Below are positions 28,201 through 64,000 of a stretch of 64,000 nucleotides of DNA, one piece after another; within the stretch, counting starts at the first letter, position 1, and each line of letters opens with the position of its first letter. A model generated the notes under the pieces. It had not been told where the DNA came from. It ran no database searches and saw only the letters and a program-made list of their open reading frames with translations. Origin of the DNA: Artemia franciscana (taxonomy: Eukaryota; Arthropoda; Branchiopoda; Anostraca; Artemiidae); assembly GCF_032884065.1 (NCBI RefSeq), contig NC_088880.1, forward strand, positions 32,205,298-32,269,297, in the 5' to 3' direction. Made by a program: the position numbers and the translations under genes.

Positions 28201-31200
28201 CAAAATTCTAAGAATTAATAGATTGATTTAAAAGGAAAATCAGAGGCTTAATCCCGGTCAGAATTTAAAATAAGAGTTCTGAGACACAAGGTCCTTCTAA
28301 ATATCAAATTTCATTAAGGTCTGATTACCCGTTCCTAAGTTACAAATACCTCATTTTTTCTAATTTTCCAAATCAACCGTCCTCCCCCCCCCCTCCCCCA
28401 TATGGTCGAATCAGGAAAACGACTATTTCTCATTTAATCTGGTCTGGTACCTGATGCGCCTGCCAAATTTCATTGTCCTAGCTTATCTAGAAGTGCCTAA
28501 ACTAGCAAAACAAGGACAGACAGACAGACCAAACAACAGAATTCGCGATTGCTATATGTCATTTGGTTAATACAAAGTGCCATAAAAATTTGGAAAACCC
28601 CGATGTTTGGCTAAATCTACTTCTAATAGACCCCCAAGAAGCTTTCGATCTGATTAACCACAATGTTTACATTGAAAAACTCCTAAAAGAGTTTCATGTT
28701 AACCCACAACTTGTTAGAATAATAGCGTCTTTCCTTTTCATTAGAACTCAATGTGTAAAGTATAAAAATGTCTACTCAGATCTCCTTCCAGTTTACTGTG
28801 GTGCGCCCCAGGGTACCCTCCTTGGCCTGCTCCTGATTATGATAAATGGACTTGCTACTGAACACCCTGACTGCTGGAAATTTGTTGAGGACATGTCCTT
28901 ACTGGAAGTGCCAGAAAATTTGAAGAGCTCAGCCATGGAAATCATGGAGGATATTTCCAGTGATGCTGCACAGGTTGACATGACTGTGAATGCCAAAAAG
29001 TCAAAAATCATGACAATCAGTTTCTTGAAGAGTACACCTTCGTTCAAGCAACCAATCCCTCTGGAGATGTCTGTCCAGCAGTGCAAACTCCTCAGTATCA
29101 CTATCTCAAGCGATCTGAAGTGGGAGGTCTACATTACTAACATCACGAAGCAAGCTAATTTGGCACTTTCTATGCTTAAATTTTTCTTCAAGTTTTCTTG
29201 CCCTGCATTCCACCTTTTAAGGATTTATACAAGTTTTATTTGCCCTGTTCTTGAATATTCTTGTCCGGTTTGGTATTTTTGCTTAACTACTTCCCAATCT
29301 TATTCAATAGAGTCAGTTCAGAAGCAAGCATTAAGAATTATCTGTGGTCAAGGCAAACTCCCATATCGCTTCCTTCTTAAGCTTTTCCAGCTCACTGCCC
29401 AATCAGAGAGAAGAAACCTCCTGTGCACGGTTTGGCAAAAAAGCAATGACAAACCCCCGTTTCCAAGATCTATTCCCCCCCCCACCCTTTCAACCTTTAA
29501 GATCCCAACCTCAAAGACCCAACTCCTAGAAAGTCCCCATCCTTCAACCTCTCCCACCAATCCACAAGAGACACAGGAAGAGTTTCATTCTTGCATTTTT
29601 AAACATTATTAATCAGTGAATTTGTTGTATTGAATCATTTTTTTAGTTAGTGATTGGTTTTTTAATCTGACAAGTGTCTATCTGACACTGTGTCTCTGTG
29701 TTTTTCTCTATTTTTTATTTGACAATTTTTATCTGACTGTAATACCTGACGCAAAGCGCTGATTCGGCACCACGCGCTGTGAAAGTCGTTTTTAAAATAA
29801 AAGTCTCTCTCTCTCTCTCTCATTTGTTTTTAGTAATAATAATATTAAAAAAAATGAAATTACAAACAATGTTTTATTTCCCATTTATTTGAGAGGGGAG
29901 GATTTATACTCCATTTAGTTATGTGGACTAAAAATTTCTGATAGTGCAGAATTGAACAGCGGAAATAAAACCTTTGAGACAACCCAGGAAAGTTGGGAAA
30001 GCTTCATACAAGGCGTGTTTTCAATTAAGGTCCATATGATCATAAGTACACAACAAATGATTATTTAAAAAAAGTAACTTTATTTTCTAAAAGTACATAT
30101 TTCACTCTATTTAAGAGCATAGTTGCCAAGTTTTTTGTAATGCTTACCATACCTCTCAACTAATTTTAAAGTAACCTCTGTATAAAAACTTGCCGCCTGT
30201 CCCTCTAACCAGGAATCACTTCTGTTTTTACGCCATCACCATTTTCTTCTTCCGGAAGGAGCTGCGATTTAGCTGGGTCTTTTGAGGCTTTTATAGATAT
30301 TCATCCCACCCCCATTGCTAGTCCAAGCTTTTATTTCTTTTTATTCTGCAGCAGTCCATGCAAAACTAATCATGAACAGAACAGTGATCCATAAGGTTTA
30401 ATGGAGCACATGTCTACTGAACTGAAAAGTTCAAACAAACTGAATAGTTTGTAACTGAACATACTAGAATAGGATGTAGATTTGACATTCTTAAATGGAA
30501 AACAAGTTTATTGAACTGAACAGTTCAAGCAAACTTAAAAGTTTGCAACTGAACATACTAGAATAGCATGTAGATTTGACAAGGTTTAATGGATGACAGG
30601 TTTACTGAATTGAACAGTTTAAGAAAACTGGACAGTTTACAACTGACATGCAAAGAAAAAAATTAGAGTAGCATGCAGATTTGATATGGTTTAATGGATC
30701 AAAAGTCTGAAGAAATGCATGTCTGTATATGAAGTTGAGGTGAAGGAGGGAGGTCCCCTTAAAAAAAATGATACAATCCTATGATAATTTGACTCAAAGA
30801 TCAGGATATGATCAGCCAACATACCCCCCCCCCCTCAAAGCTGATACCCCAACTTTAAATTTAAATTATAACTGGATAATGTAAGAGTCGGAAAGGAGCT
30901 TATACAAACAAGCTTTTACTGAGCAGAATTCTGAAGAGATGAAACTAGTCTAAATGGAATTTAGGAAAGAAGGGTAGGATCCCCAGTCACAGTATAAGGC
31001 ATTACAACTATATTTAAGAGAAATTATACAGAATAAACAATCCTTTGATTCATATACATGAAATAGTTTCCTCTGTTTCTGTACATGAAATAGAAAGCGA
31101 TATAGACCACCTACCAATTTCCTTCATGCTTGGTATTTCTCTGTCGCAAGATTATTCTAATAGACGTAGGAATCGTAGATGGGTTACCAGACGAAATTGG

Positions 31201-34200
31201 AATAAGGCTAATTGGGCTCTTTATATTTCTACCCTTACAGCTTTTCTGTCTAGGATAAAAGTTCCTTTTCAGCTACTTCAGGTTGGATCTAAATTTGTAA
31301 ATGATAAGAATTTTCTGAATAAATATTATTTTGATGTTATATCATGCATGAAGGAAGCTGAGAGGGTGGCTGTTCCCGAAGAACGTGTTAAATTTAATAC
31401 GCGGAAGCCTGAATGGTCTTGGGATCCGGGTCTAAAATCAGTGAAAAATAAAGCCAAATTTTGGCTACGTATTTGGGTTTCTTGCGAACGACCACGTAGC
31501 GGTGTAGTATTTCAGCTTGAACAGAAAACTAAATTAGAGTATAAAAAGTATTTACGGTTTGCAAAATCTAAAATTTGCATATTCCCATCAAGTAATTTCG
31601 ATTGGAAAAATGTGGTAAATTCAAATAAAATCGATGACTCTTCATCAACAAGTAGCCCAATTAGTCCTGCTGCTTGGTGCAAATATTACGACCAGATTTT
31701 CAACACTATAAACCATTTTGTTCATGCTACTTTTATGAGGTTTCTTATTTCTGCGCTTCCCATATCACTCCGCCAGAACCAGATCCTCCCAGTTAATTTA
31801 GTTTCGGTGGCACAAGCTATAAAAAAGCTTAAGTCTAGCTCTATTGATTGTGATGGTATAAGTGTCAAACACATAAATGTTGATTGTCCAGCTCTAGTCC
31901 AACATTTACAACTTCTGTTTCAAATGTGCTTATGCACCTCAGCTGTGCCTGAAAGTTTTTTGTGTGGAACAGTTACTCCGATCCTGAAAAGAGGAAAGAT
32001 TCCGACTGAGTGTGCATCTTACAGGCCAACAACGGTTTCCTGCAATATAAGCAAAATTTTTGAGTATCTTCTCCTCTCATCAGTTAATTCTTCGGCATAT
32101 TTTGGTGAAAATCAGATTGGGTTTTCAGCTGGGGTAGGTTGCCAGCAGGCTCATCGAGTTTTGGCTACTGTTCTTACTGAGGCTACTAAAAAGGGATTCG
32201 AGTTACATTTATGTGCTTTGGATCTCTCCAAAGACTTTGACACTGTTACGCCTTCCCAGGCTATCTTTTCCCTTTTTGGCCATGGTATCAACATATCGGT
32301 AATTTTTCTTCTTAGATATTGGTATTCAAATCCATTTTTGAGGATTAAAATGGATATGAGGGTTTCAGATAGTAAAATTCCAATACGACGTGGGGTCCGG
32401 CAAGATGCTGTCCTCTCCCCCTCTATTTTCAAACTTTGTATATCATCTGTCCTTTCCTCTATCCCACCTACTTGCATCCTTAATTCTGTAAATATTTCTT
32501 ATCTCGCCTATGCAGATGATATTCTTTTGATCAGTAGGACTAAAAAAGGGCTCTCTTTGTCTGTTTCAACAGTAGCATCTAAACTTCATGCGATTAGACT
32601 TTCTCTTAATCTTTCAAAGTGTGAATATCTTTCATTTAATAGCAATATCACTACTCCTCTAATCTGTGGATCTTTTTCTATCCCGTCGGTTTCTTCATTT
32701 TGGTGGCTGGGAATTAACGTTAGTAAAACTCTAAAATCCTTACGGACTCTCACTGTTGCTGATTGCAAGAAGAAAATCCAATTAAGTTACTCTAAAATTG
32801 GTGCTAACCGAGGAAGATACAATAGAAAGTCTCTTGCTAAATTATATTCGGTTTTTACAGATCATTTGGTTTTGTTTCTTCTGGTATTTACCCTATTTTT
32901 CATAAAAAAGATATCAGTTCAATTCGTTCTTATTATTTCCGGTTTTCCCGTTTTCTATTGTATCTGCCTCCATGGTATAGGAATAGGAGCCTCATATTCT
33001 ATTTATAGTTTCCTGGATATTGGGTCGAAGCTCACAGAGCTTGCTGGCAAAATACCCCAGTCTACTTATAAGTATCTGCCCGCCCACGGAGGCCTTACTC
33101 GTTTGCTTTAGTTTCTTGTTTTTTCTGTTTTGTGTAGTATTTGTTTTGTTTCTTTTATTGATACTCCGATTTGATTTTTGTAGCAGGTCAAAAATAAATT
33201 ATTATTATTATTATTATATGTATGATTGAACTACACTGGCTACATGACCCAAAGCTTCTCCTCCCAATATTGACACCCATGCTTTAAATTTTTATAGTAA
33301 TTGGATATTAGACCACTAAGAAGAAAACTTACCAGTATTGGCTGAAAAACATAGGAAAACTTACCCAATTGAACCTAAAATCTAAAAAACTAAAAGAAAC
33401 CTTACACAAACAAGCAGAGATGTGATACTATTTAATGCAGCTTCCATTTCCAATTCTTTATTTTCTTGAAAGCAGAAATGGCAAGATTCTATGATATGTG
33501 TCAGGTCATCATCTAGAACTCCAGAAGAATCAGGAATGTCTGCTCCAAGAGACTGCATGTAGTCACACAGTTCTTTACACTAAAAGAAAAAAAAAGAAAT
33601 AACAACATTGTAGCACAGAGCTGCATCAGTTTCTTTGTTATATTTACCCCAAGGGTTGGCATCTTGAGAACCTTGTAACAAAGAGGTTTAAATCTTAGTC
33701 AAAATAAATAGTAAAGAAATTAGTTAAGGCCAATTATTATGCTCAAGCTTGGCAGCCTATATTAGCCTAGATGTTGCCCCTCCCTCCTGTACATGGGCAT
33801 GTAAATACACTAAAAGATGATTAAGGATTGAACAACATTTTGAAATAGAAAACAAAGATGTATTGGGATACCTAAAGAGTAATGGTCTAAAAAGTTTATG
33901 TGTCTGTTCCCAATTTTAGAGTTTTTTTTGTTGCATTTTTATTTTGTCAAACAGCTGAGAAAAGGAGGGTTCAAAGGATTATGAACTACCTATGTAAAAG
34001 GCAAGTACACAAATACACAAAATCAAAGGTGAAAACTATGTATTAAAAAATGCAGCAGAGATTCAGAACATGTTGTTTTTGGATTAATTTAAGTTTTTGT
34101 AGAAACACACTTCATCAGATTTTTTTTTGTAAGTCAATTTTTAGGTAAATAGCCTGCTGAAAAATAAGTTTTAGTAGAAAAAGACTTCCTGGCTGAAAAA

Positions 34201-51500: not shown

Positions 51501-54500
51501 TGCTGCCTCTCATGGTCAAGTGGGCTAGACCATCAAGTCTAGTGGGATAATGGGCTAGACAAGCCATATATTCTGATATATGGCTTGTCATTACAGCAGT
51601 CAAATCCAATTCTAGCTTCAAATGTTTTGTCATGAAAGTATTATCAATGTTTGAACGGTGAATTTTCAACCGATTTAGGGGAGGGACGTACTGATAAAAG
51701 TAGATAGAACTTTCAAAATAGGGGCTTAATGACACATATCTTCGTTTTAACTCATACCATTAGAAAGAAGAAATGGCACAATAGACTTTAAATTATAGTT
51801 TTTATCTTTTGATTTTAGACGCCCAATCTGTTAAAGCCAATTTTGGCTTTAGATGCGTCATCACGAAAGTATTTACAAGGCTTAAACATTGAAATTTAAG
51901 CCAATGTGGGGGCGGAAGGGATATTAATATGAGCATAGACGCACTTAATTAACAAAGGATCAATGAAGCGTCTCTTCCCTTTAACTTTTATCTTTACAGA
52001 AAGTTATCATCGGTCAGTTTCGTTCTACGCTAAAGAGTGTGGAACCTCGAGTCACATATTAGACGTCGGCTAGCTACAAAAGGTCAGTGACGCTGGGATT
52101 CACCAGAAGACAGGGTAGCCACGTACGAAACAAATAATTGAAGAAAAACGGGTTTAATTTTTTTAAATAAAGCAGTGACAACAAAATAAAATAAAAACTA
52201 CACTTTAACTAACAAAAAATAAAAATACTCCGAATATTTCGGCCCCACCTCCGGGAGCCTTTCTCAACGGAAAAAAAAAAAAAAAAAAAAAAAGGGAGAA
52301 AATTACAACAATTTAAGACTACTTTTAAGACATTTTAAAAATGCCACGACAACTAAACCAAACTAAAAATATAAACAATCAAATATAAAAGAAACAAGAA
52401 CTCACATTTTTAAAACAAACACTCCCGCACTTGACTGTAACTTTAGAAAAAAAACTGCAATAATTGTTTCTATTGGCACTTTCCTCTGCCACAATCGCTG
52501 TATAAATGGGGATCTATCAAAAATGAAAAATATAAATACTTGTAACAATACGAAAAAGAGGTCACCCAACCCCCAAATCCAATCAAAATCTTACAGGTTA
52601 ATGAAACACAATTATGAATTATAAATTGAATGGATTTTTTCATTTGCTATTTTAGCTGCCGTCCGTTGACTTCTTACAGCATTGACCATGCTTTGACCTC
52701 CGTTCGCAAGGTTATTACTTGTTTCAGGACAATTATGCAAACCAATACTCATTGAAGTTTTTGACTGGTCTTTAATTAAACTATTATAAATTGAATTTAT
52801 TTTAAATTCCCCCTCATCTCTATTGATACTAATACCCCCATAGATAATCTTTTTTATTTCTATAATTTCTCTGAAACTTTGTAAAAGTCCTACAGACTTA
52901 TCAATAATTTTTGTCTGATCAAATAAAATACTATGATGAGGAAAATTATACACGTGACCAGCTATAGCGGATTCAAAAGTATCAGGTTTTTTATTTTGTC
53001 TTAGCGAGCAATCTATCGCGTATTTGTGTTGCTGTAGCCTATTTTTTAAATTCTGCTGTGTTCTACCTACATAAAATTTACCACAAGAGCATGGAATTTT
53101 GTATACCCCCTGTTGTATATTTCTTGGAACTTTATCTTTTCCGTTATTTAGCCATGATCTTATATTTTGTCCTGATTTAAAAGCTGTTTTTATATTATGT
53201 TTTTTTAATTCTTTCCTTAATTTCTGTGACAACCTTGGGATATAAGGCAAAGTTATGTAATTTGGTTTTTGATTTGATTCATTTTCTTCTAATTTTACAG
53301 GTTCCAGTAACTTTTTTTTTCCTTTTTTCAATTATTTGAGAAATCATATTTTCGGGATATCTATTTCCTACTAGAATATCCTTAATAAAAATTAATTCAC
53401 TACTAATGTATTCTGGTGAAGCTAAATTTAACACTCTATCCACTAAAGAAATAACTACCCCCCTTTTTACTTGGATCGGGTGATTTGATGTGAAAGACAA
53501 ATAGCGGTTGTTATTAGTTGGTTTACGGTAAATTGAAAACACTAGTTTATTATTATTTCTATGGATCCAAATATCCAGAAACGGTAATTTTTTCTCTGTT
53601 TCATTTTCAATTGTAAAAACCAATTCCCCTCATCATTATCTTGTAGTCATCATTATCTTGGGCACGTCCTCCGAATAGAGGAGTGAAGGATCAAAAGTGA
53701 TGGACGTCGATGGAGAGAGAGAGACTTAGTTCTAGGAAAGTGATGAAATGAACAGCAAAAGGAAAATCACATATACATTTCGACAGAATTCTGTCTGTTT
53801 GGCTAGTAGTTATCCCCCACTGATTTAAAAATCGCCAATAGCTGCTATCCTTTCTTTCTTTAATCTAGAAGAAGGTTCAACGGCGATTCTCTTAGGGGGA
53901 AAATCTTGTGTTAATTACATGATGGGGAATGTTTTCTAAAAGATTCTGGTGCAAGTTACGCCAATGGTAATGTTTTCTAAGATATGCAGGCGCATGTTAC
54001 ATAATAGGGAATGTTTTCTAAGAGACGCAGATGCATGTTGTGTCACAGGGAATTTAGTTATGCAAATATAATGTAAGAGGATGTGTTTGAGTCCACTAGT
54101 CAAGCGAGGAAATTTTGTTAAGGCATTTTTCTTCAAGACATTTTTTCAAGACGTATCAAGATATTCCAAGACCTTCTTCGTGGGGCCTCTAACCTAACTA
54201 CTGGGGGCCATAGCATCCAATTCAACCGATATCCCTAAAATCAAATTTTACCGACCCCTTAACCTAACCACCGAGGTACTAGCAACAATTTCAACCGAAT
54301 CCCTAGCATCCCATTGCATCGGGGACCCTAGGAACCAATTGCAATGGAAGCCCTAGCGAGCAACACCAATGGGGGCCCTCTAGCATCCAATTCTAATGGG
54401 ACCCTCGCATCCAATTCCATCGAGACCCCTTAAGCTAACCACTGGGTGGCCATAGCATACAATCTCACCGGGGGTGTTTTGTAACAAGTATTTTTTATTT

Positions 54501-57500
54501 TGAAAGAACAATATCTGATTTCTTGTGTTTTGTAAGAGCCGTTATGATTGTTTAAGATTTATTTTTGTTTTGTAGGAATTATTTGTGTTTCGTACCAAAA
54601 ATTTGCGATTTCTTAGGATGTAGTTTTGTTTTGTAAGAATTAGTTTGATTTTTTAAGAAGTATTTTGTAAGAAAAATTGGTGATCCTTTGGGAAGCATTT
54701 TTGTTTTGTAAGAATCTTTTGCTTCGTAAAGTGTATTTTGTAAGTTGTAAGAAGAATATTTGGTTTCTCAGGATGTAATTTTTTTTATGAGTTGTATTTT
54801 GCTTTGTAAGAAGTACTTTTTTTTTGTAACAGGTCTTTGTATTTTGTAAGAACAATCTTTTATTAATTAGGATGTATTTTTGTTTTGTAAGAATCATCTT
54901 CTGTTTTCTAAGAAGTATTTTATATTTTGTAAGAACAATTTGTGATCTCTTAGGATGTATATTTGTTTTGTAAGAATTAGTTTTTGCTTTGCAAGAAGTA
55001 TTCTTTATTTTGTAACAATTTTTTTTTATTTTGTGGAACAATATCTAATTTCATAGGATGTATTTTGTATTTTGCAAGAAGCGTTTGTGATTTTTTAGGA
55101 TGTATTTTCGTTTTGTAGGAATTATTTTTGTTTTGTAAGAAGTAATTTTGATTTTTTGGGATGTATTTATGTTTGTAAGAATAATTTTTTTTATAAGAAG
55201 CAATTTGTAAGAGGAAATGGTGATCTTTTGAGATGTATACTTGTTTTCTTTAGAATTTCTGTTTTATATGATGTATTTTGTATGATGTAAAACGAGTTTG
55301 TGATTTCTCAGGATGTATTTTTTATAAGAAATATTTTTTTCTTTGTAAGAAGTATTCTTTGTTTTGCAACAATTATTTTTTATTTAGTAAGAACAATCTC
55401 TGATTATTTAGGATGTGTTTTGTAAGAACCGAATCTGAATGTTTAGGATGTATTTTTGATTTGTAAGAATATTCTTTTGTTTTGTAAGAAGTGTTTTCTA
55501 TTCTGTAAGAGGAATTCATGATCTTTTGGGATGTATTTTTGTTTTGTTAGAACTATTTTCGCTTTGTAGGAACAATCTCTGATTTTGCTGTATTTTCAGT
55601 TTTGTAAGAATTTTGTTTTGTTTTGTAGCAAGTAGTTTTTGGTCTGCAAGAAGTATTTTTTGTTTTGTAAGAAGTATTTTTGTTCCGAAAGAATAATTTA
55701 TGATTTCTTAGGATGTTTTTTTTTGTAAGAGTTGTTTTTTTTGTTTTTAAAGAAGTACTTTGTATTTTATAAGATGAATCTGTGATCTCTTAGGATATAT
55801 TTTTGTTTTTAAAATTTTTTTTTGTTTTGCATGAAGTATTTTTTGTTTTGTAACAAGAATTTTTTATTTTATAGAAAGAGTTTTAGATTGATTAGGATGT
55901 ATTTCTGTTTTGGAAGAACCAAGTTTTGCTCTGTATGAAGTAGTTTTTGTTTTGTAAGAAGTATTTTGTATTTTGTAAAAACAATCTCTGATTTTCTTTT
56001 GTATTTTGTTTTCTAAGAGTTGTTAACGATGTATTGTTGTTTTGTAGGAATCTTTTTTTGATTTTTGAGAAACATTAGAACAAAATCAGTTTCACGAGGA
56101 GAAAATTCAATGTACAAGTTTCACGAAGAGAAAAATCAGCATGCAACAAGTTTTCTGATTTTTGTTTTTTCTTAAGTCAAAGATTTAAATCTTTTAAATT
56201 AACCTGATTTTTCTTAGCGAAACTTTTACATTGATGTTTATCCTCGTGAAACTGATTTTGTTCATATATTTCTTTCAAAAAAAAATTTTAAGACAAATAT
56301 ACATCCTTAATATTTCTTAAAAAACAAAAAGACATAAAAAATCAGAGATTTTTCTTACAAAATGCTTCTTACAAAACAAAAAATACTTCTTAACAAAATA
56401 AAAATATATCCCTAACAATCACAAACTTTTTCTACAAAATACAAAATATTTGTCACAAAACAAAAAATACTTTTGTATTTTGTTTACAAAGCAAAAAAGA
56501 ATTACTACAAAACAAAAATACATCCCAAAATATCACAAATTCTTCTTACAAAATACAAAATGCTTCTTACAAAACAAAAAAATAACTCTTAAAAAATAAA
56601 AATACATCCCAAGAAATCAAAAATTTTATTTGAAAAGCAAAAAATAATTCGTTAAAACGAAAATACATCCAAAGAAATCACAAACGGTTCTTACAAAATG
56701 CAAAATACATCATAAAAATCAGAGATTGTTCTTAAAAAAATACAAAATACTTGTTACAAAACCAAAAATACTTCTTATAATGCAAAAAATAAGTCTTAGA
56801 AAACTAAAATACATCCTAAGAAATCACAGATTGTTATTGCAAAATGTCACCTTCCTACTGCTGCCATCCAATCATTTTCACTCAAAGATGACGACAAGTT
56901 TTGATATATCTCTAGTGTTTAGAGCTAGAGACATATGAAGTGGGAATTTATGAAGATTTATATAATTACACTCTAGTTGGGTTCATTTAGGTCCAATTAG
57001 CGTGCCTCCACTATGCTAAGTAAACCTAAATAAGCCTAATTATAATACAATCATTTATGCTGTCCATTGCTTGCCATCATTTGCTAGGAGTCATCAGAAG
57101 AAATTCTAATGGAGGTTTTTTCATTAAGTTTGATGGAATTTTAATGTAAATGAATATTTTGCAGAAAAATGCACAAAAATTCCTAATGTTCAATAATGGC
57201 TGCTAGAGGGTGTTGTGTGTTAGCCATTGAGTGCCACAGACTGGGATTTGAGAGAATGGGTTTCTAGGGTACCCATGTTTCTTTAATTAAATGTTCTTTT
57301 TGCTTATATTTTATCCTTTAACAAGTTTCTTTCACGTTTCGTTTTAACTGCCTTTTCTATGTTTTAATAATGCTTCTAAATTTTTTTATTAGTAAAATTT
57401 GTCTATACAAAAATTTGTATCCTGGAAATTTGGATCCAGGATAAAACTTCAATATATTTGACTAATACCACTTAAGCATATTGTAGCCTATGCACAGAGG

Positions 57501-59636
57501 TATCCTCAGTCAAGAATGTCGGTCATATAAGTCTAAAGTTCTGTGTAGTAAAGAGGAAAAGGAAAAAACCTCTAATCATCTACGAAGGTTACCTTATTCT
57601 AATCATAATTGTGCTCTCAATTTTATTTAATATCTGATAGCAATATTATATGATAACAGTTTCTAAAGCGTTACTTAACATTCAGGTGCATACCCAGTGC
57701 TATCAATTTCTAGTAATCAATTTCCGCTCTGCGTTTCAATTAATGGAACCAAATGGGAACACGCAATCAATTTAATCACTCTAGTGCGAGCGAACAGGGA
57801 ATCTCCTTGCGTGCAATAGGTCATCACGTAGAATACATTTGTCGAATCTTAATCTTTATGTGGCCATACAATCTTTGGAACATAAAGGCTCACTGAGAAG
57901 AAAGTTTTAAAAGAAAATGAAATCTCTCAAAGTATGATGTAACATCCCATGTTTGCAGCGTCATTACGTAACATCTCACGTGTGCACTATTCTCAGTTAC
58001 AAGGGGATTCCCCACGTCCCCCTTAAGTCTAGCATGTGACGCAAGATTTTATCATCCTTGACATAATAGACATTTCCCTACTACATAACAACTAAAGAAA
58101 TCTTGAAACGTCTTGAAAACATCCTGTCGGTGAAATTGGTCACTAAGGGTCCCCCCGACGGAATTGGATGCTAGCAGTTCCCTAATGAAATTGGATTCTA
58201 AAGACCCGGTGGTTAGGTTAGGGGCCTCAATGAAATTGGATCTTAGACCCTCGATGGAATTGGATGCTAGTGTCCCACCAGTGAAATTTGATAATAGGGC
58301 CCCTGTTGGTAGGTTAGTGACCCTGATTAAATTTGATGTCAGGCCCCCGATGGAATTAGATACTGCCCCCCCCCGGTGAAACTGGATGCTATGGCCTCCT
58401 GGTGGTTAGGGGCTCCAAATGGAATTGGATGCTAGGGGGCCCCTTTGGATTTGGCTGCTAGGGGCCTCGATAGAATTGGTTCATAGGGCCCTAGTTGAAA
58501 TGGTTGCTATGGTCCCGGTGGTACGTTATGGGGCCAAGGAAATTGTATTTTATGGCCCCCAGTGGTTAGGTTAGGGGCCCCCGTAAACCGTCTTTTATTA
58601 ACCACCGAGTTGTCTTAAGACGTTTTAGAAAATGTCTTGAAGAAAATTGTCTTAATAAAATTCCTCCGCTTGACAAGTGGATTCTAACACGTCCTATTAC
58701 GTAACATTTGCAGAACTAAACTTGCCCTATGACGTAACATGCTTCTGCGTCTCTTAGAAAACATTCCCTATTATGTAACGTGCACCTGCATCTCCTAGAA
58801 AGAATTCCCTATGATGTAATTAACACCTGCTTCATGCCTTGAGGGAATCACCGTTAAAACTACTGTCTGATTAACGGAAGAAAGGAGTAGCGGCCATGGG
58901 CAATTTTAAAACCATTGATGCATCATTACTTTTGCTATACCACTTCGGTTTTAAATATTTTACCATTTAAGTGACTATGATGTTTCTAGTAATCTAACTC
59001 TGTTTGAAGTTGGGGGGCGGATCAATATGAGCGCGCATAAATTTATGTGACAAAGACTCAATAAAGGGTCTTTTCTTTTAACCTGTACCCCTAAGAGAAA
59101 GAAATCGCTAATGCAGTGTCCGAAGATAATCGGTAACGCGGTGTCCAAAGAGAACCGCTAATGCAGCGTCCGAAGAGAAATCGCTAATGCAGCGTTCGAA
59201 CAGCAATCGCTATTGTGGTGTTTGAAGAGAATGACTAACGCGGTGTCAGTCTACTAAGAGTGGATCCAAAAAGATAGAAATCCCTATATTTTATTAAGTA
59301 TTCTACTTAAGTAATAGCTGATATTTTTTGTCACCTTTATGCTACTGACCAAGTGATCCACTTCTCACGCCACATTGCTCAGATGAGAAATAGACGTATA
59401 TAATATTAGACACAAGTTATTATGTGAAAAATGCAGAGAACACACTTTACCTTCAACAGCCAGAATTGTTGGCTGTGACAGTCTTCAGACGTCCCATGAA
59501 TTATGTCAATTTTGTCAAAAGCTATGTTTATACTGCATCCACAACCACAGGTAACATTTTCTATTCTGGTGAGTTCATATCCGGAAACAGGGTAGCAAGG
59601 CGGAAGTTCACAGAGTTCAGTTTCAACTGAGCTACC
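42454..59636 (-). CDS. Single-pass membrane protein with TSP1-end, CUB-like domain and endocytic-motif tail (5' incomplete)
   Basis: Five coding exons on the minus strand, 59451-59636, 49838-50081, 47401-47580, 44936-45606 and 42454-42567, join with matching phases (0, 1, 1, 0) into 464 residues. Numbered from the first visible codon: residues 1-16 end a TSP1-like repeat (ELCELPPC); residues about 28-143 form a CUB-like domain (CGCGC, SEDCHSQQFWLLK, VYISFFNSSC, ILQVRGG, VALIAFV); residues 144-225 are a stalk with a dibasic RKRS; residues about 227-252 are the transmembrane helix; the rest is cytoplasmic, with NPLY at 344-347 and EEEDLL at the C-terminus. These two tail motifs are known PTB/clathrin-adaptor binding types, so surface receptor or sorting behaviour is inferred. 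I do not recognise the gene. The 5' exons must lie past the window edge. Confidence 0.82.
42568..44935 (-). other. Last intron of the membrane-protein gene
   Basis: The right part (about 43740-44700) belongs to a dispersed repeat with CTTTAGCGTAAA and GTCGCTCCTTACTTTC blocks, followed by runs such as TTCTCCATGGAAAATCTCCT. The latter style recurs at 47880-48290. The left part (42570-43700) shows nothing I can name. Confidence 0.6.
43740..44700. repeat. Dispersed repeat family copy
   Basis: Segments match other copies in the window: CTTTAGCGTAAA...GGGGGCAACCC and the TCGCTCCTTACTTTC block (compare 41071-41180 and 20110-20250), and the AATGGGCGAATTTCAT / TTCTCCATGGAAAATC block (compare 47935-48130). 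No terminal repeats or coding sequence are visible. It is likely a non-autonomous transposon family. Confidence 0.55.
44936..45606 (-). CDS. Membrane-protein gene, transmembrane and cytoplasmic exon
   Basis: This 671-bp exon runs from a TTTTTTTCAG acceptor (phase 1) to an ATGGAG|GTAAGA donor (phase 0). It encodes a short extracellular INLENFSRRIDTSLP segment, a hydrophobic helix IFVMATFVFIFTGICILFTI ending in a KRSEND stop-transfer, then a polar tail rich in Ser, Pro, Asn and Asp. The tail holds NPLYE (NPxY type), several tyrosines in acidic context (DYYDFD), and a hydrophobic TEPALIAWALDYMNPGISYE segment near the 3' end that looks like a conserved binding motif. Confidence 0.85.
45607..47400 (-). 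other. Intron of the membrane-protein gene
   Basis: About 1.8 kb without recognisable coding sequence or repeats. Short open frames near 45774-46294 on the plus strand have no family resemblance that I can see. Confidence 0.6.
47401..47580 (-). CDS. Membrane-protein gene, stalk exon
   Basis: A TTTTATCACAG acceptor and an AGAG|GTTAAG donor bound a 180-bp exon, phase 1 to phase 1, that links the CUB exon to the transmembrane exon in frame. It encodes SPRNPALVNLIHFTTPTTAA, then TPMRKRSVAGSAFHRIFKKY and SVSQNLKALILEYLR. The RKR-S site could be cut by a proprotein convertase, although the P4 residue is Met rather than Arg. No domain is recognised; the call rests on phases and open frame. Confidence 0.7.
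48277..48483. repeat. Direct duplication of about 93 bp
   Basis: The block CTAATATCTTCATTTTTTCA ... GCCTTTAATCACATTCTTTA occurs twice with starts about 111 bp apart. The second copy lacks four bases (CTAT) after ACGTAG, otherwise the copies are almost identical, so the duplication is recent. Confidence 0.9.
48936..49005 (-). pseudogene. Relic of CUB exon 2 (3' end)
   Basis: The minus strand reads TTTTCACTTGTTGCTACTGT and TCAATCTAT, matching the TCATTTGTTGCTACTGTTCA AGC end of the functional exon at 49838-50081. Upstream similarity fades quickly. It lacks a good donor. Confidence 0.65.
49121..49275 (-). pseudogene. Relic of CUB exon 1
   Basis: Over about 120 bp the segment aligns with the functional exon at 59451-59636 from the CCGGATATGAACTCACC region through TGTGGTTGTGGATGCAG to the CAATTCTGGCTG region. 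In the same frame it has TGA and TAA stops (TGT AGA TGA, GAA TAA). It sits between two relics of the following exon, so an ancestral exon pair was duplicated and decayed. Confidence 0.75.
49456..49540 (-). pseudogene. Relic of CUB exon 2 (3' end), second copy
   Basis: The minus strand has TTATCTTCATTTTTTACTAC followed by TGTTCAATATAT, clearly related to the last 40 or so bases of the exon at 49838-50081. It is decayed, with no open frame or donor. Confidence 0.55.
49838..50081 (-). CDS. Membrane-protein gene, CUB exon 2
   Basis: The acceptor is AACTATTCTAG (phase 0) and the donor ATCG|GTAATT (phase 1). It encodes ADNGKGIQVYISFFNSSCCD, GNHILQVRGG, LLFEYTNSSF and VALIAFVHNH, then CSSSFVATVQAI, in the order of strands and the D-x-L-x-V-x-G-G core of a CUB-like domain. 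N-glycosylation sequons are NSS, NSS, NNS and NCS. The preceding exon supplies the first half of the domain in frame. Confidence 0.82.
50264..50400. repeat. Degenerate TATACACTTA repeat
   Basis: TATACACTTA-like decamers with variants (TATACGCTTA, TATACATTTC) are repeated over about 135 bp. Tyr/Ile/His-rich open frames here are artefacts of the repeat. Confidence 0.8.
50518..50588 (-). pseudogene. Relic of CUB exon 2 (5' end)
   Basis: The plus strand reads ATCACAGCAACTCAAGCTGA then ACCAAGAAATATACACACGA ATCC, paralleling the functional exon's first 70 bases (ACCATCACAACAACTTGAGT, GAAAGAAATATACACTTGGA TCC). It lies about 450 bp upstream of the real exon on the minus strand. Confidence 0.65.
51590..51960. 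repeat. Diverged direct repeat pair
   Basis: Two segments about 240 bp apart share CAATTYTRGCTT, AAAGTATT and an AATTT-GGGGGGG-type end (51592-51725 and 51830-51960). A third relative is at about 58925-59090 with GGATCAATATGAGCGCGCAT. This is a dispersed, poorly preserved family. Confidence 0.45.
52200..53635 (-). mobile_element. Penelope-like element, 5'-truncated, with GIY-YIG endonuclease
   Basis: The frame at 53623-53279 covers the RT region after the catalytic palm: FTIENETEKKLPFLDIWIHR, SIYRKPTNNNRYLSFTSNHP and VKRGVVISLVDRV, a Penelope hallmark. After a frameshift in a homopolymer near 53300, the frame at 53331-52612 carries RLSQKLRKELKKHNI and a GIY-YIG nuclease: GVYKIPCSCGKFYVGRTQQN, with the distal REIIEIKKI and ISINRDEG blocks. 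The catalytic YADD region is missing, so the copy is dead. The 3' UTR continues to about 52200 and contains a hairpin like the Penelope-associated hammerhead motif and an internal homopolymer run at 52270-52293. Confidence 0.92.
52205..52268 (-). ncRNA. Degenerate hammerhead-ribozyme-like motif in the Penelope-like element
   Basis: On the minus strand the order is TTGAGAA, a GC-rich hairpin GGCTCC...GGGGCC, then GAAA and a short A/T hairpin around TTCGGAG. This parallels the CUGANGA, helix II, GAAA and short helix III arrangement of minimal hammerheads known in Penelope-like elements. The first core box departs from consensus at two positions, so self-cleavage is doubtful. Confidence 0.45.
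53655..53720 (+). mobile_element. Short LINE-like remnant
   Basis: The plus strand reads LGHVLRIEE, a stop, then a basic segment with GRRWRERD, reminiscent of the WLGHVLRM box near LINE C-termini. It is too short to classify. Confidence 0.3.
54180..54475. repeat. CCAATT-type minisatellite in left foldback arm
   Basis: Irregular units of about 25-35 bp resemble CCATAGCATCCAATTCAACC with GGGGCCCTAACCTAACCAC variants. The reverse-complement relatives (GAATTGGATGCTAG, GTGGTTAGGTTAGGGG) lie at 58130-58575. Confidence 0.85.
54480..56050. repeat. TTTTGTAAGAA-type tandem repeat in left foldback arm
   Basis: Units of irregular length (about 55-110 bp) combine GATTTCTTAGGATGTATTTT, TGTTTTGTAAGAA and GAAGTATTTTTTGTTTTG. 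Lys/Tyr/Leu-rich open frames on the minus strand across it are artefacts. Confidence 0.85.
56290..56850. repeat. TTCTTACAAAA-type tandem repeat in right foldback arm
   Basis: This is the reverse complement of the 54480-56050 repeat: TTCTTACAAAACAAAAAATA, AAATACATCCTAAGAAATCA. It is shorter than the left array (about 560 against 1570 bp), so the two arms have changed in length independently. Confidence 0.85.
56860..57950. other. Unmatched segment inside the right foldback arm
   Basis: About 1.1 kb with no counterpart in the left arm and no recognisable coding sequence. It could be an inserted element, or arm sequence lost from the left side. No clear terminal repeats were seen. Confidence 0.5.
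58130..58575. repeat. GAATTGGATGCTAG-type minisatellite in right foldback arm
   Basis: Units of about 30 bp alternate GAATTGGATGCTAGGG with CCGGTGGTTAGGTTAGGG. They are reverse complements of the units at 54180-54475. Confidence 0.85.
59100..59255. repeat. Minisatellite, about 31-bp units, 5 copies
   Basis: Units have the form GAGAAATCGCTAATGCAGCG TCCGAA with substitutions. The array lies about 200 bp downstream (minus-strand sense) of the donor of the exon at 59451-59636. Confidence 0.85.
59451..59636 (-). CDS. Membrane-protein gene, TSP1 end and CUB exon 1
   Basis: The acceptor is CATTTTTGTAG and the donor TTGAAG|GTAAAG; 62 whole codons, phase 0 at both ends. It begins GSSVETELCELPPCYPVSGY, where ELCELPPC resembles the final cysteines of a thrombospondin type 1 repeat. 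It continues ENVTCGCGCSINIAFDKIDI and SEDCHSQQFWLLK, the first strands of the CUB-like domain completed by the next exon. A decayed copy lies at 49121-49275. It is the most 5' exon I can find. Confidence 0.82.
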
Positions 59637-62600
59637 CTACAAAAATGAAAGGAAAGAACGAGAGCTCAGAAGAAAATAAACCTAAAATTCTTTAAAAGTG
59701 GTGAATGGGGCAAAGACTTGATATGTCTTTTGCTTAAAAATGCCATACTTTTTTGAACGTTAGAAAAAATTGCAATTGTTGATTCTTTTTCTTGTTTATT
59801 TTCGATGTTATTTGATTATTTTTGTCTTTATTTTTCTTGTTAGGATTTATTGGGCTTTTTATGATTATGCTAAATATGCAAAAACTAATTATGAAGCAAA
59901 AATTCGCATGATTTTTGAAAAAAAAACCAACACCCCCCTAAAAGTACGAGAGATCTAAACAACATTTCAAAATCACATTCAGCAAGCGTATCAAGAAATC
60001 CTAACACAGAGGCTTCAAGGCCCTTTTAACAAAAATGAAAAATTCTGCTTTTTTATAGAGAAGAATGATCACAGAGCCGTGTTTACTTTTTTTTTCCTCG
60101 AATCAACGGTAAATCAATAGTCGAATCAAACGGTTAATCTAAAAAAATCAGAAGAACGCTGATTCAAATGGGAATCAACAGTTCTACTACCGTCATTAAT
60201 ATTTCATCTGTGTCATTTTGACAGCCTGGATGAGCTTAAATTCTTTTGATTTAGTTCGAAAATAATGGTAAATGTGTATTACAAGTAGCATTTACTGTAG
60301 CAGCAATATTAGTAGTAGTAGAAGAAGTAGTAATAGTAGTGGCAGCAACAGCAGTAGTAGTACTAGCAGCAGTAGTATTATTATTAGTGTTAATAGGAGT
60401 AGTGGCTGCAGTAATCCCAAAAGGTCCAAGTTAATACCCTCAGCCGTTCCTGAGATATTGATTGACAAATCTTCATGCGTACTTAGAGTTTTGATTTTGT
60501 TCAACATGCACTTCAATATCTCCTGAAATTTTCACATTAGTACCCTTAGCCATTCCTGAGATATTGCAGATAAACGCTTCTAAGATCCACATTAGTTAAA
60601 CATTCCCTTCAGTCGTCCCTAAGATACCCTTACACGGTGTCTTTTGATTTATTCCAACATCTCCAGTATCATACTCTGAATTTTCCAAAATAACATACTT
60701 AGATCTTCTTGAGGTATTACACAAACGCCGTTTTGACAATCTGGAAGCTCATAGTACCTTTTTATTTAGTTTTACACCCCTCTCAATTTTCCCTGAAAAA
60801 TAGAACTTGGTATCCTTTTCTGTTGCGGAGACATTGTAGCTACGCCACTTTGACAGTCTGGACACGCTTAAACCTTTTTGATTTAATTGAATAGTAGTAG
60901 CAGTAATAGTGGCAGCTGTAATAGGACTAGCCATGACAGTTTCAAATAATTTCCATAGCCGTTCTCGAGATATTGCTGATACGTCTTTTTGAAAACCAGT
61001 ATACATATAGTGCCTTTTGATTTAGTTTCATAGCAACGTAGAAATTTCTCTGAAAGTTCCTAATTTATGCCCTATTCCAGCCCTAAGATAGCCTGTCTAC
61101 GCCATTTTGATATTCTGAATGCGCTTTAATTATTTTGATCTAGTTTAATAGTAGCAGTAGAAGTAGTAGGAAGTAGTAACAAAAGTGGCAGCAATATTAG
61201 CAGCACTGAAAAATTCAGCTTAATTACCTTATAGCGTAGCTGGGATATTGCTGATACATCCTTTTGATAACCCGCATGTACATATTATGTTTTAATTTAC
61301 TTTAGTATCGCCCTCAAAATGCCCTGAAAGCTTCAATTTAATACTCTTGTCCGTTCCTGAGATATTCCTAAAAAAACCTATTATGCATAAACCTAGCATG
61401 TTTTGATTTATTCCAACATGCCCCTCGACATTTCCTGAAAATATCTGCTTAATAACCTTAGCTTTAGTAGTAGTATTAGTAATAGCAGCAGCATCAGCAA
61501 TAGTCGTAGTAGTAATAGTAGTAGCTGCAGCAGCGATAGTAGTAAGAGCAGTAGTAATAGAAGCTACAGTAGTTATATGGATGTAGTATCTTTTGGTTTG
61601 TTCAACATCCTCGCCAACACGCACTGAAGGTTTCTACTTAATATTCTAAGCTGTTCATCGGGTATGCCTGATGCACTTTTTTGATAATCTGCCTCTACAT
61701 AGTGTGTTTTGATATAGTTCAACATCCCCCTCAGATTCCCTGAAAGATTTTTTTTATTACCCTAAGCTTCAGCTGGAGTAGTAGTCACATTGCTGGTAGT
61801 ATCAGGAGTAAAAGTAGAGGGAGTGTGCACATAGTGCCTTTTGGCTAGTTCAACATCACTCTCATTACGCCCTAAAAATTTCATTCTAATGCCTAAGCGG
61901 TCTCTAAGAAATTGCTGAAACGAATTTTTGACAACCTGCATGCATAGAGTGTGTTTTGATTTAGTTCCACTCCCCCCTAAATCTTCCCTGAAAGTTTCAA
62001 CTTAATACCCCTACCCTCTGTAATAGTAGCACCCATAGTAGTACTAATAGTAGCAAAAAGAGTGGTACCACGCACATAGCAGCTTCCTGTTGGTTCAGCA
62101 CCTCCCTCAACATGCACTGAAAATTTCAGTTTAATACTATAATTCTAAGTTCCCTAAGATATAACTGATACGTCTTTTTGACTCCCTGCAGGCATACGGT
62201 GTGTTTTGATTTTGTTTAATGTCCCCCTAAACATTCCCTGCAAATTTCACCTTAATACCCTTAGCCTTAGTAATAGTAGCACTTTTAGCAGAAATAGTAG
62301 TAGTAAAAGTAGTAGTAGCACTAGTAGCAGCAGCAGCAGTAGTAGTGGTGGTAGTAGTACTAGTAGAAAGAAGTAGTCGTATTAGTAGTAGTCGTAGTAG
62401 AATGCACATAGTGTCTTTACTTTAGTTCAGCATCCACCTCAACATGCCCTGAAAGTGTCAACTTAAAGCTCTAACCTGTTCCTGAGATATTGCTGATTCT
62501 CTCTTTAGAAAACCTGCATATACTAAGCGTGTTTTGATATAATTCGCCATCCTCCTCAACATTCCCCACTTCAATACCATTTGCCTTATTGGTAGCTGCA

Positions 62601-62867
62601 ATCGTACTAGTGGTAATACTAGCAGTAATAGTAGGATGCACGTTGTGTCTTTTTGTTACTTCAACATCAACCTCAACATATCCTGAAAGTTTCAAGTTAA
62701 TACTCTAAGCTGTTTCTGAGATATTGATGATATACCCGTTTGATAACCTAAATACACAGAGTATGTTTTGATTTAGTTCAATATCCCCCAAACATCCCCT
62801 AAAAGTTTCGGCTCAATATCCTTAACCTCAGTAGAAGTAGGAGTAACTGTAGTAGCACTAGTAGCAT

Positions 62868-62919
<52 letters not shown>

Positions 62920-64000
62920 CGTAGTAGTAGTAGTAGTAGTAGAAGTATGCACATAATACCTTTTAGTTTCTTTCACCCTGCCCTGAAAGTTTAAACTTAA
63001 TGCTCTAAGCAGTTTATGGGACGTGAATGAAACGTTATTTTAACAGCCAAGATACACATAGTACTTTTTGATTTAGATCGAAATACCCTCAACACTCTCT
63101 GAAATTTTCACCTCAGTACCCTTAACCTTAGCAGTAGCAGCATCAATAGTAATAGATGTAACAGCAGTAGTGGTAGTACTAGCAGTGGTAGTAGTAGTAG
63201 TATCAGTGGTAGTGGAAGTAGTAGCAGTAACATGTACATAGTGTCTTTTGGCTAATTTGACATCCCCCCAAAACATACCCTGTGAGTTTCAACTTAATCT
63301 AGTTTCAAAAGATTTACTAGAATTTAAAGGTTTCACCTTAATACTCTATGCCACTCCTAAGATACCACTGCTACATCCTTTTAACAACCTGCACAGACAT
63401 ATTATGATATATTTTAGTTCTGCTTCCTTCAGAATTCCTTGAAATATTCCCCTTAGAAGCCTTAGCCTTAAAATTGGAGTGGCCTTAGTAGCAATAGTAG
63501 GAGCAGTAATATTCGCAGCATTAGTAGTAACAGTAGTAGCGGTAATAAATGGAGTAATAGTAGTACGCAAATTGCTTTTTGGTCAGTTGAAATCCCCTCA
63601 TTATTCCCTGAAAGTTTCAATTAACGCTCTAAGTCGTTCCTAAGATATTACTGATGCATCCTTTTAACAACCTGTATACACATAGTGAATTTTGGTTCAG
63701 TTAAACCTCCCCCTCAACATTTCCTGATATTTTCACCTTAATACTTTACGCCTCAGTAGTAGTCGCAGTAGAAGTAGATGTTGTTGTGGTAGTAATAGTG
63801 GTAGTAGTAGTAGTTGTAGTAGTAGTAGTAGTAGGAGTAATAGTGTTACCGTACACATATTGCCTTGTGGTCAAGTAATCACCCTTCTCATCATTCCCTT
63901 AGAGTTCTGAGTTATTACCCTAAGTCATTCCTGAGATGCGTCCTTTTGACAACCTGACAACCTGCATAGGGCTCTAAAGTCGCTGACCGTTACCTCCTGT
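59637..64000. other. Upstream part of the membrane-protein gene, no exon recognised
   Basis: From 59637 to about 60200 there is AT-rich sequence with nothing definable. The rest to the window edge is the AGT composite satellite. Since the first exon found starts in phase 0 and within a domain, the gene must continue beyond 64000. Confidence 0.7.
60200..64000. repeat. Composite satellite of about 280-bp units containing AGT-rich tracts
   Basis: About 12 AGT/AGC-rich tracts lie near 60350, 60910, 61175, 61520, 61795, 62045, 62336, 62610, 62885, 63180, 63515 and 63795, mostly 250-345 bp apart. Between tracts each unit carries a module twice: GATTTAGTTCAACATCCCCC, TCAACATTCCCTGAAAGTTT and CACCTTAATACCCTAAGCC; one copy is followed by TTCCTGAGATATTGCTGATA and TTTTTGACAACCTGCATACA. 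Minus-strand frames give RYYVH plus polythreonine peptides, which are artefacts. The array runs off the window. Confidence 0.88.

What the first reader, a model, noticed from the sequence alone, without database searches (positions are those of the whole stretch)
53815..58915. Giant foldback element whose arms are built of two different tandem repeats
Reverse-complement arms several hundred to 2,000 bp long share the same layered order (flank, CCAATT minisatellite, TTTTGTAAGAA repeat) around a nested central palindrome. Arms of unequal length show that the tandem repeats expand or shrink independently on each side. Foldback transposons with tandem-repeat arms are known (Drosophila FB, sea urchin TU); the two-layer arm and central palindrome here may define a new family. 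No transposase is inside.
Basis: partly seen in the sequence, partly recalled or inferred. Interest (0 to 1): 0.7.

Follow-up and report, generated by a model that had tools for sequence, protein, structure and literature searches.

The report
Foldback satellite of a Maverick virus-transposon
This is a real, long hairpin-like mobile element that seems to carry no genes but has the ends and insertion footprint of Maverick virus-like transposons, so it probably hitch-hikes on their enzymes.

Summary
The foldback is real. It spans 53805-58930 (5,126 bp), slightly wider than reported, flanked by a 6-bp target duplication, TTGGCT/TTTGCT, alike at 5 of 6 bases. It belongs to a large family: a 23-bp core of its end occurs 540 times in this 1.27-Gb genome, the reversed control 0 times. 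It is not FB/TU-type. Its ends are AGT repeats, and over 8 end pairs the 6-bp flanks match at 0.85 (mispaired 0.29). (AGT)2 ends with 6-bp duplications are reported for Mavericks. A 16.3-kb element on C11 has the same ends and a decayed DNA polymerase B. Best reading: a gene-less foldback Maverick, integrated (and probably copied) by Maverick enzymes in trans. The arms hold more layers than the finder saw: end, 41-bp repeats, spacer, GGAATTGG minisatellite, a 1.3-kb non-repetitive block (right arm only), TTTTGTAAGAA array, central palindrome. Against: the inner layers were not found in the Mavericks examined, and two further Maverick ends share only part of the end. Five literature searches listed no foldback Maverick. 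Trans-mobilisation is inferred.

The parts
53799..53804 (.). left copy of 6-bp target duplication, TTGGCT
   Evidence: 5 of 6 identical to the right copy
53805..53900 (+). left terminal module E, begins AGTAGT
   Evidence: aligned with 23 other ends; inverted match to 58837-58930, 75%
53925..54053 (+). 41-bp tandem repeats (R41), left arm
   Evidence: TRF period 41, 3.1 copies; module scan
54054..54179 (+). spacer module S, left arm
   Evidence: inverted match 53948-54222 / 58541-58827, 77%
54180..54475 (+). CCAATT/GGAATTGG minisatellite (M), left arm
54476..56060 (+). TTTTGTAAGAA array (T), left arm, about 1,585 bp
   Evidence: TRF period 21; module scan
56056..56285 (.). nested central palindrome (C)
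   Evidence: arms 56056-56133 and 56208-56285, 81%; DNA fold z -10.6
56291..56845 (-). TTTTGTAAGAA array (T), right arm, about 555 bp
56846..57059 (-). module U3, right arm only
   Evidence: also in the C13 copy (L025), and a short piece in the opposite direction in C3 (L009)
57060..57850 (-). module U2, non-repetitive, right arm only in this copy
   Evidence: 54 matches in own genome, itself included, among 40 scored of 2,269 candidates; in both arms of the C3 and C15 copies
57851..58125 (-). module U1, non-repetitive, right arm only in this copy
58130..58600 (-). GGAATTGG minisatellite (M), right arm
58601..58717 (-). spacer module S, right arm
58718..58840 (-). 41-bp tandem repeats (R41), right arm
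   Evidence: TRF period 41; best matches to the C11 Maverick TIRs 77-85%
58841..58930 (-). right terminal module E (read inward AGTAATGATGC)
   Evidence: 75% and 78% match to the two TIRs of the C11 Maverick
58931..58936 (.). right copy of 6-bp target duplication, TTTGCT

Best explanation
The element is an old, non-autonomous (gene-less) member of a Maverick/Polinton lineage that has taken foldback form. Shown: Maverick-type ends (AGT repeats), 6-bp target duplications in the family, many copies, and a shared terminal repeat with a 16.3-kb element that carries a decayed DNA polymerase B. Inferred: the ends are substrates for a Maverick integrase (insertion with a 6-bp stagger) and for its protein-primed polymerase (copying as linear DNA), both supplied in trans by autonomous relatives. 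The two arms would start alike because both ends of such a linear molecule are copied from one sequence, and drift apart after insertion. The tandem arrays and the middle block change length or are lost in single arms.
For: Ends: 24 ends were aligned, the window's two and 22 picked from fetched loci. 14 of 24 begin exactly AGTAGT, 9 differ from it at one base, one (C11b right) keeps one AGT unit; 22 of 24 lie within 5 mismatches of a 21-bp core further in, among them both ends of the C11 Maverick. Target duplication: 6/6 in C10, C9, Maverick C11 and C11b, 5/6 in the window and C15, 4/6 in C3, 3/6 in C5; mean 0.85 against 0.29 mispaired, and 0.29-0.36 for each other length from 3 to 12. Empty sites: of 7 elements whose flanks were joined with one duplication copy, 2 gave junction-spanning matches in the loci held: C15 (8 alignments in L015, L020, L049 and L068, 6 without and 2 with a single-base gap beside the junction) and Maverick C11 (3 alignments within a local tandem repeat). 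Published signature: (AGT)2//(ACT)2 ends, 6-bp duplications, TIRs of 46-1,447 bp in vertebrate Mavericks (PMC8097293, passages and section 7); 6 bp for Polintons also in PMC10045372 (passages). Coding relative: TIRs at C11:31525772 and 31542099; pieces of its frames match PolB loci in order, E down to 3e-9, and one of those loci scores E 1.5e-27 with PF03175. Its polymerase region has relatives at 39 other scored places, with the next gene block downstream in at least five. Two relatives followed to their end begin AGTAGT: C12 also has R41-type repeat (E 2e-6), C15 shares 17 bases with the C9 foldback end. Own arms are sister rows in 5 of 8 elements.
Against: The inner layers S, M, U1, U2, U3, T and C were not found in the C11 Maverick (0 rows at E 1e-3), and in 29 other loci (28 around polymerases, one foldback flank) only four matches of 15-22 bp appeared at E 3e-4 to 1e-3. 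The C12 and C15 Maverick ends lack the 21-bp core (9 and 10 mismatches). Upstream stretches of 18 polymerase loci (2.6-5 kb) showed no family end, apart from one stray AGTAGT and one weak reversed E match (E 6e-4); only 2 were followed further. Integrase, capsid and protease of the C11 element have no support from Pfam, PHROGs, PDB or phage records; polymerase B alone is not peculiar to Mavericks. Most aligned ends were found by likeness to the window's end, so their core is not independent evidence. End boundaries of C11b and Maverick C11 were set by eye; without these two the 6-bp match is 29 of 36 bases. The window's own arms are only rank 3 of 29 in likeness and unresolved in the tree, and its flanks have no empty copy. 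No activity was observed.
Confidence: 0.85

Rival explanations
1. A classical foldback element (Drosophila FB-like, or P-like such as Galileo) moved by a cut-and-paste transposase.
For: Same overall look: long inverted arms of tandem repeats, no transposase seen, variable inside.
Against: The duplication is 6 bp, not about 9; ends are AGT repeats shared with a polymerase-B element. By eye no transposase among ORFs of at least 110 aa in 17 fetched loci; these were not searched by profile apart from a nested Helitron.
Confidence: 0.05
2. A 6-bp-duplication cut-and-paste superfamily such as IS3EU/GingerRoot moves it.
For: IS3EU and GingerRoot make mostly 6-bp duplications (PMC10045372, passages).
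Against: Their termini are TA..TA, occasionally TG..CA (same passages); these are AG..CT. Ends are shared with a polymerase-B element.
Confidence: 0.04
3. The window copy is simply a decayed Maverick that lost its genes after insertion and gained repeats on the spot.
For: Its ends are Maverick ends and it is old (own arms 76% identical).
Against: The same ordered modules recur in insertions on other chromosomes, so the gene-less form itself multiplied.
Confidence: 0.04
4. Assembly artefact.
For: Large inverted repeats are classic misassembly sites.
Against: The outer arms differ at about 24% of bases, whereas artefactual mirror copies would be near identical; target duplication and recurrence on many chromosomes; empty sites for two related insertions.
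Confidence: 0.01

Closest known systems
Mavericks/Polintons (polintoviruses)
   Same: AGT-repeat ends, 6-bp target duplications, terminal inverted repeats; end shared with a 16.3-kb element bearing polymerase B
   Different: No genes seen; 5.1 kb; arms lengthened into nearly the whole element by tandem arrays around a central palindrome
Drosophila FB and Tetris foldback elements (Tetris: PMC4079207, abstract and outline seen; FB recalled)
   Same: Long inverted arms with internal tandem repeats, gene-less, presumed moved in trans
   Different: Duplication length (9 bp for FB, recalled); arms here have several different layers; helper is probably a Maverick
Galileo (P superfamily; PMC3573991, listing and abstract start seen)
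   Same: Long internally repetitive TIRs
   Different: Classified by a P-type transposase; end sequences not compared here
Maverick MITEs listed in Helicoverpa (PMC9033116, two passages seen)
   Same: Gene-less elements assigned to Mavericks by 6-bp duplications
   Different: 50-800 bp with TIRs of 10-42 bp, a handful of sequences; no foldback or tandem-repeat arms in the passages seen
Tlr elements of Tetrahymena (passages of PMC5182062 and title of Wells 1994 in its reference list; tandem repeats in their inverted repeats recalled)
   Same: Maverick-type elements with long inverted repeats
   Different: Gene-bearing; in a ciliate

Membership tests
Maverick/Polinton | 6-bp target site duplication | tested here: met
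   0.85 match over 8 pairs against 0.29 control; window pair 5/6
Maverick/Polinton | (AGT)2//(ACT)2 or related end motif | tested here: met
   window left AGTAGT, right AGTAAT read inward; 14 of 24 aligned ends exact, 9 one base off; motif from PMC8097293
Maverick/Polinton | terminal inverted repeats | tested here: met
   53805-53897 / 58837-58930 and further in
Maverick/Polinton | protein-primed type DNA polymerase B inside the element | tested here: not met
   no such ORF of at least 120 aa in the window element; present, decayed, in the C11 element with the same ends. So the window element would be a satellite of the family, not a full member
Maverick/Polinton | retroviral-type integrase and capsid genes (in the C11 relative) | tested here: inconclusive
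   pieces resemble them by eye only; no support from Pfam, PHROGs, PDB or phage records
Drosophila FB-type foldback | about 9-bp target duplication (as stated in the finding) | tested here: not met
   9-bp match 0.31 against control 0.30
Drosophila FB-type foldback | long inverted arms with internal tandem repeats | tested here: met
IS3EU/GingerRoot | TA..TA or TG..CA termini with 6-bp duplication | tested here: not met
   termini AG..CT
Foldback Maverick (this proposal) | mobilisation in trans by Maverick enzymes | not testable with these tools
   inferred from shared ends and duplication length

The most novel reading that the evidence does not exclude
The family is the genomic fossil record of defective, snap-back genomes of an animal Maverick virus: palindromic linear molecules that keep only the replication and integration ends, arise when protein-primed strand-displacement copying folds back on itself (as recalled for incomplete adenovirus genomes; a search for that literature, listed nothing on point), are copied and perhaps packaged with helper proteins, and are then integrated like the parent. 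That the inner layers were not found in the Mavericks examined counts against it but does not exclude it.
Probability: 0.2. Interest if true: 0.85.

Novelty: new variant of a known kind. Interest (0 to 1): 0.62.

Why it matters
Known foldback elements are, as far as I recall, tied to cut-and-paste transposases. A large gene-less foldback family with Maverick ends would mean that the foldback form can also ride on a self-replicating, virus-like transposon, and would give Mavericks a satellite population comparable to the defective genomes of viruses. The end core is a ready probe for such copies in other genomes with Mavericks.

Tried and rejected
FB/TU kinship: rejected by duplication length. 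Individual decay of a Maverick: rejected by modules shared between copies. Inner layers as Maverick sequence: not found (one search had shown only the first six rows per locus), so a simple inverted duplication of a sampled Maverick end is not supported. Integrase, capsid and protease names for pieces of the C11 element: suggested by eye, no support from Pfam, PHROGs, PDB or phage records. A viral-contig scan with a PolB of this genome found no relative. The C5 pair (28727.4k/28734.2k) has a 3/6 duplication match and arms of 65% identity, so it may not be one element; it was kept in the counts. No empty site for the window copy; 5 of 7 joined flanks had no junction-spanning match in the loci held. 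The host species was not identified.

Full report
Setting. The host species was not identified.

Observation. The window holds an inverted structure with several nested layers. Self-comparison of 53.5-59.3 kb gives inverted pairs of up to 297 bits, against 29-45 bits in 10 locally shuffled copies. Read from outside inward, the layers are: E, the end (about 95 bp); R41, 41-bp tandem repeats; S, a spacer; M, a minisatellite with GGAATTGG; then, in the right arm only, U1/U2/U3 (about 1.3 kb, non-repetitive); T, the TTTTGTAAGAA array (about 1,585 bp left, 555 bp right); and C, a central palindrome that folds with z -10.6.

Ends and footprint. The outermost alignable bases are 53805 and 58930. Read inward, the left end begins AGTAGT and the right end AGTAATGATGC. 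The flanks are TTGGCT and TTTGCT, 5 of 6 alike. For eight end pairs (seven family pairs and the C11 Maverick) the last n bases of the left flank were compared with the first n of the right, n from 3 to 12. Only n = 6 stands out: 0.85, with 0.29 for mispaired flanks; each other n gave 0.29-0.36. Per pair: C10, C9, Maverick C11, C11b 6/6; window and C15 5/6; C3 4/6; C5 3/6. Two boundaries (C11b, where one AGT unit is taken as lost, and the left end of Maverick C11) were set by eye; without these two pairs the sum is 29 of 36. For two of seven elements tried, the boundary has a further check: the C15 flanks, joined with one duplication copy, align through the junction with diverged repeats in L015, L020, L049 and L068 (8 alignments, two with a single-base gap beside the junction), and the Maverick C11 flanks join into a local tandem repeat (3 alignments). 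The window's own flanks match only themselves.

Family. Searches with the left arm and with the right end gave 79 and 42 matches, each from 40 scored candidates of 1,384 and 1,100. A 23-bp core of the end occurs 540 times with up to 2 mismatches, the reversed control 0 times; this count can include ends of gene-bearing elements. A module scan of 23 fetched loci and the window shows the order E-R41-S-M-U1-U2 in full in C3 (L009), C9 (L013) and C1 (L017), and parts of it in most of the others. Elements with both ends range from about 1.7 kb (C10) to 9.3 kb (C9, with a nested Helitron-type helicase gene). U1 and U2 are in both arms in C3 and C15, in one arm in the window and C9; in C10 only U1 was found, in one arm. 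The two arms of one element are sister rows in the tree for C3, C9, C15, C11b and Maverick C11 (5 of 8; 3 of these forks pass both support limits); window and C10 are unresolved, C5 is not sister. This fits arms that were alike at insertion and then drifted, but the window copy does not itself show it.

Kinship. Two end hits on C11 face each other 16.3 kb apart. Between them lie decayed reading-frame pieces that match, in order, loci with DNA polymerase B (E down to 3e-9). Those loci were found with PF03175 (44 matches at E 0.001 or better; 0 of 14 control genomes); one was re-scored at E 1.5e-27. The inverted repeat of this element (179 bp, 85% between its two ends) matches the window's E at 75-78% and R41 at 77-85% in the best pieces. 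A search with its polymerase region found 113 matches in 40 scored candidates of 1,333, that is 39 other places, and the block after it lies downstream of the polymerase in at least five (C10, C12, C4343 and two on C3). Upstream stretches of 18 polymerase loci (16 of these relatives with about 2.6 kb, two others with 4.6-5 kb) showed no convincing family end. Two, chosen because sequence like that near the C11 end reached the edge of the stretch, were followed outward, and both hold AGTAGT near the predicted place: C12 has R41-type repeat next to it (E 2e-6), and C15 shares its first 17 bases with the C9 foldback end. Both lack the 21-bp core that 22 of the 24 aligned ends have within 5 mismatches. 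Vertebrate Mavericks are reported to have 6-bp duplications, (AGT)2//(ACT)2 ends and inverted repeats of 46-1,447 bp (PMC8097293, passages and section 7). So the element carries Maverick-type ends and a Maverick-type footprint.

How it works. Shown: ends, footprint, family, kinship of ends with a polymerase-B element. Inferred: integration by a Maverick integrase in trans, copying by a protein-primed polymerase in trans, likeness of the two arms at birth, and array length change afterwards. The origin of the inner layers is not known: none was found in the C11 Maverick, and in 29 other loci (28 around polymerases, one foldback flank) only four matches of 15-22 bp at E 3e-4 to 1e-3. This speaks against a simple inverted duplication of a sampled Maverick end. 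The snap-back (defective genome) idea remains possible if the layers came from another Maverick or from captured host DNA.

Known or new. Five searches of open full texts - Polinton with foldback (7 papers), Maverick with foldback and related terms (16), non-autonomous Maverick/MITE terms (26, 15 listed), Polinton with minisatellite (8), foldback/palindrome/adintovirus terms (11, 10 listed) - listed no paper whose title or abstract start describes a foldback Maverick. Passages were read in seven papers found by these searches or, and abstract and outline of one, not the whole texts. Short Maverick MITEs are listed in Helicoverpa (PMC9033116). I rate it a new variant of a known kind.

Noticed in passing
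window 52612-53331 (-): ORF of 239 aa with a GIY-YIG nuclease domain (PF01541, E 1.2e-4); looks like the end of a Penelope-like element just left of the foldback.
   Followed up: partly
window 31018-33111 (+): 697-aa open frame that looks by eye like a LINE reverse transcriptase.
   Followed up: no
window 59099-59247: 25-bp tandem repeat (about 6 copies) shortly right of the element, not one of its modules.
   Followed up: no
window 60297-63844: Several AGT/TAG-type trinucleotide tracts within 3.5 kb.
   Followed up: no
window 10691-11448 and 20440-20767: Minisatellites with 47-bp (16 copies) and 74-bp (4.4 copies, 95% match) units.
   Followed up: no
L013 3394-6842: Helitron-type genes nested inside the C9 foldback copy; the helicase part scores with Pif1 (PF05970, E 1.5e-32), the rest by eye.
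   Followed up: partly
L067 525-628 and L042 about 685-990: Mavericks here carry subterminal repeats of about 50 bp (CTTCAGGG...TTTCTAAGAT), different from the foldback layers.
   Followed up: partly
L022 3316-4272: Matches L043 45-1035 at 79%; probably a LINE present both near the C20 foldback arm and in the C11 Maverick.
   Followed up: no
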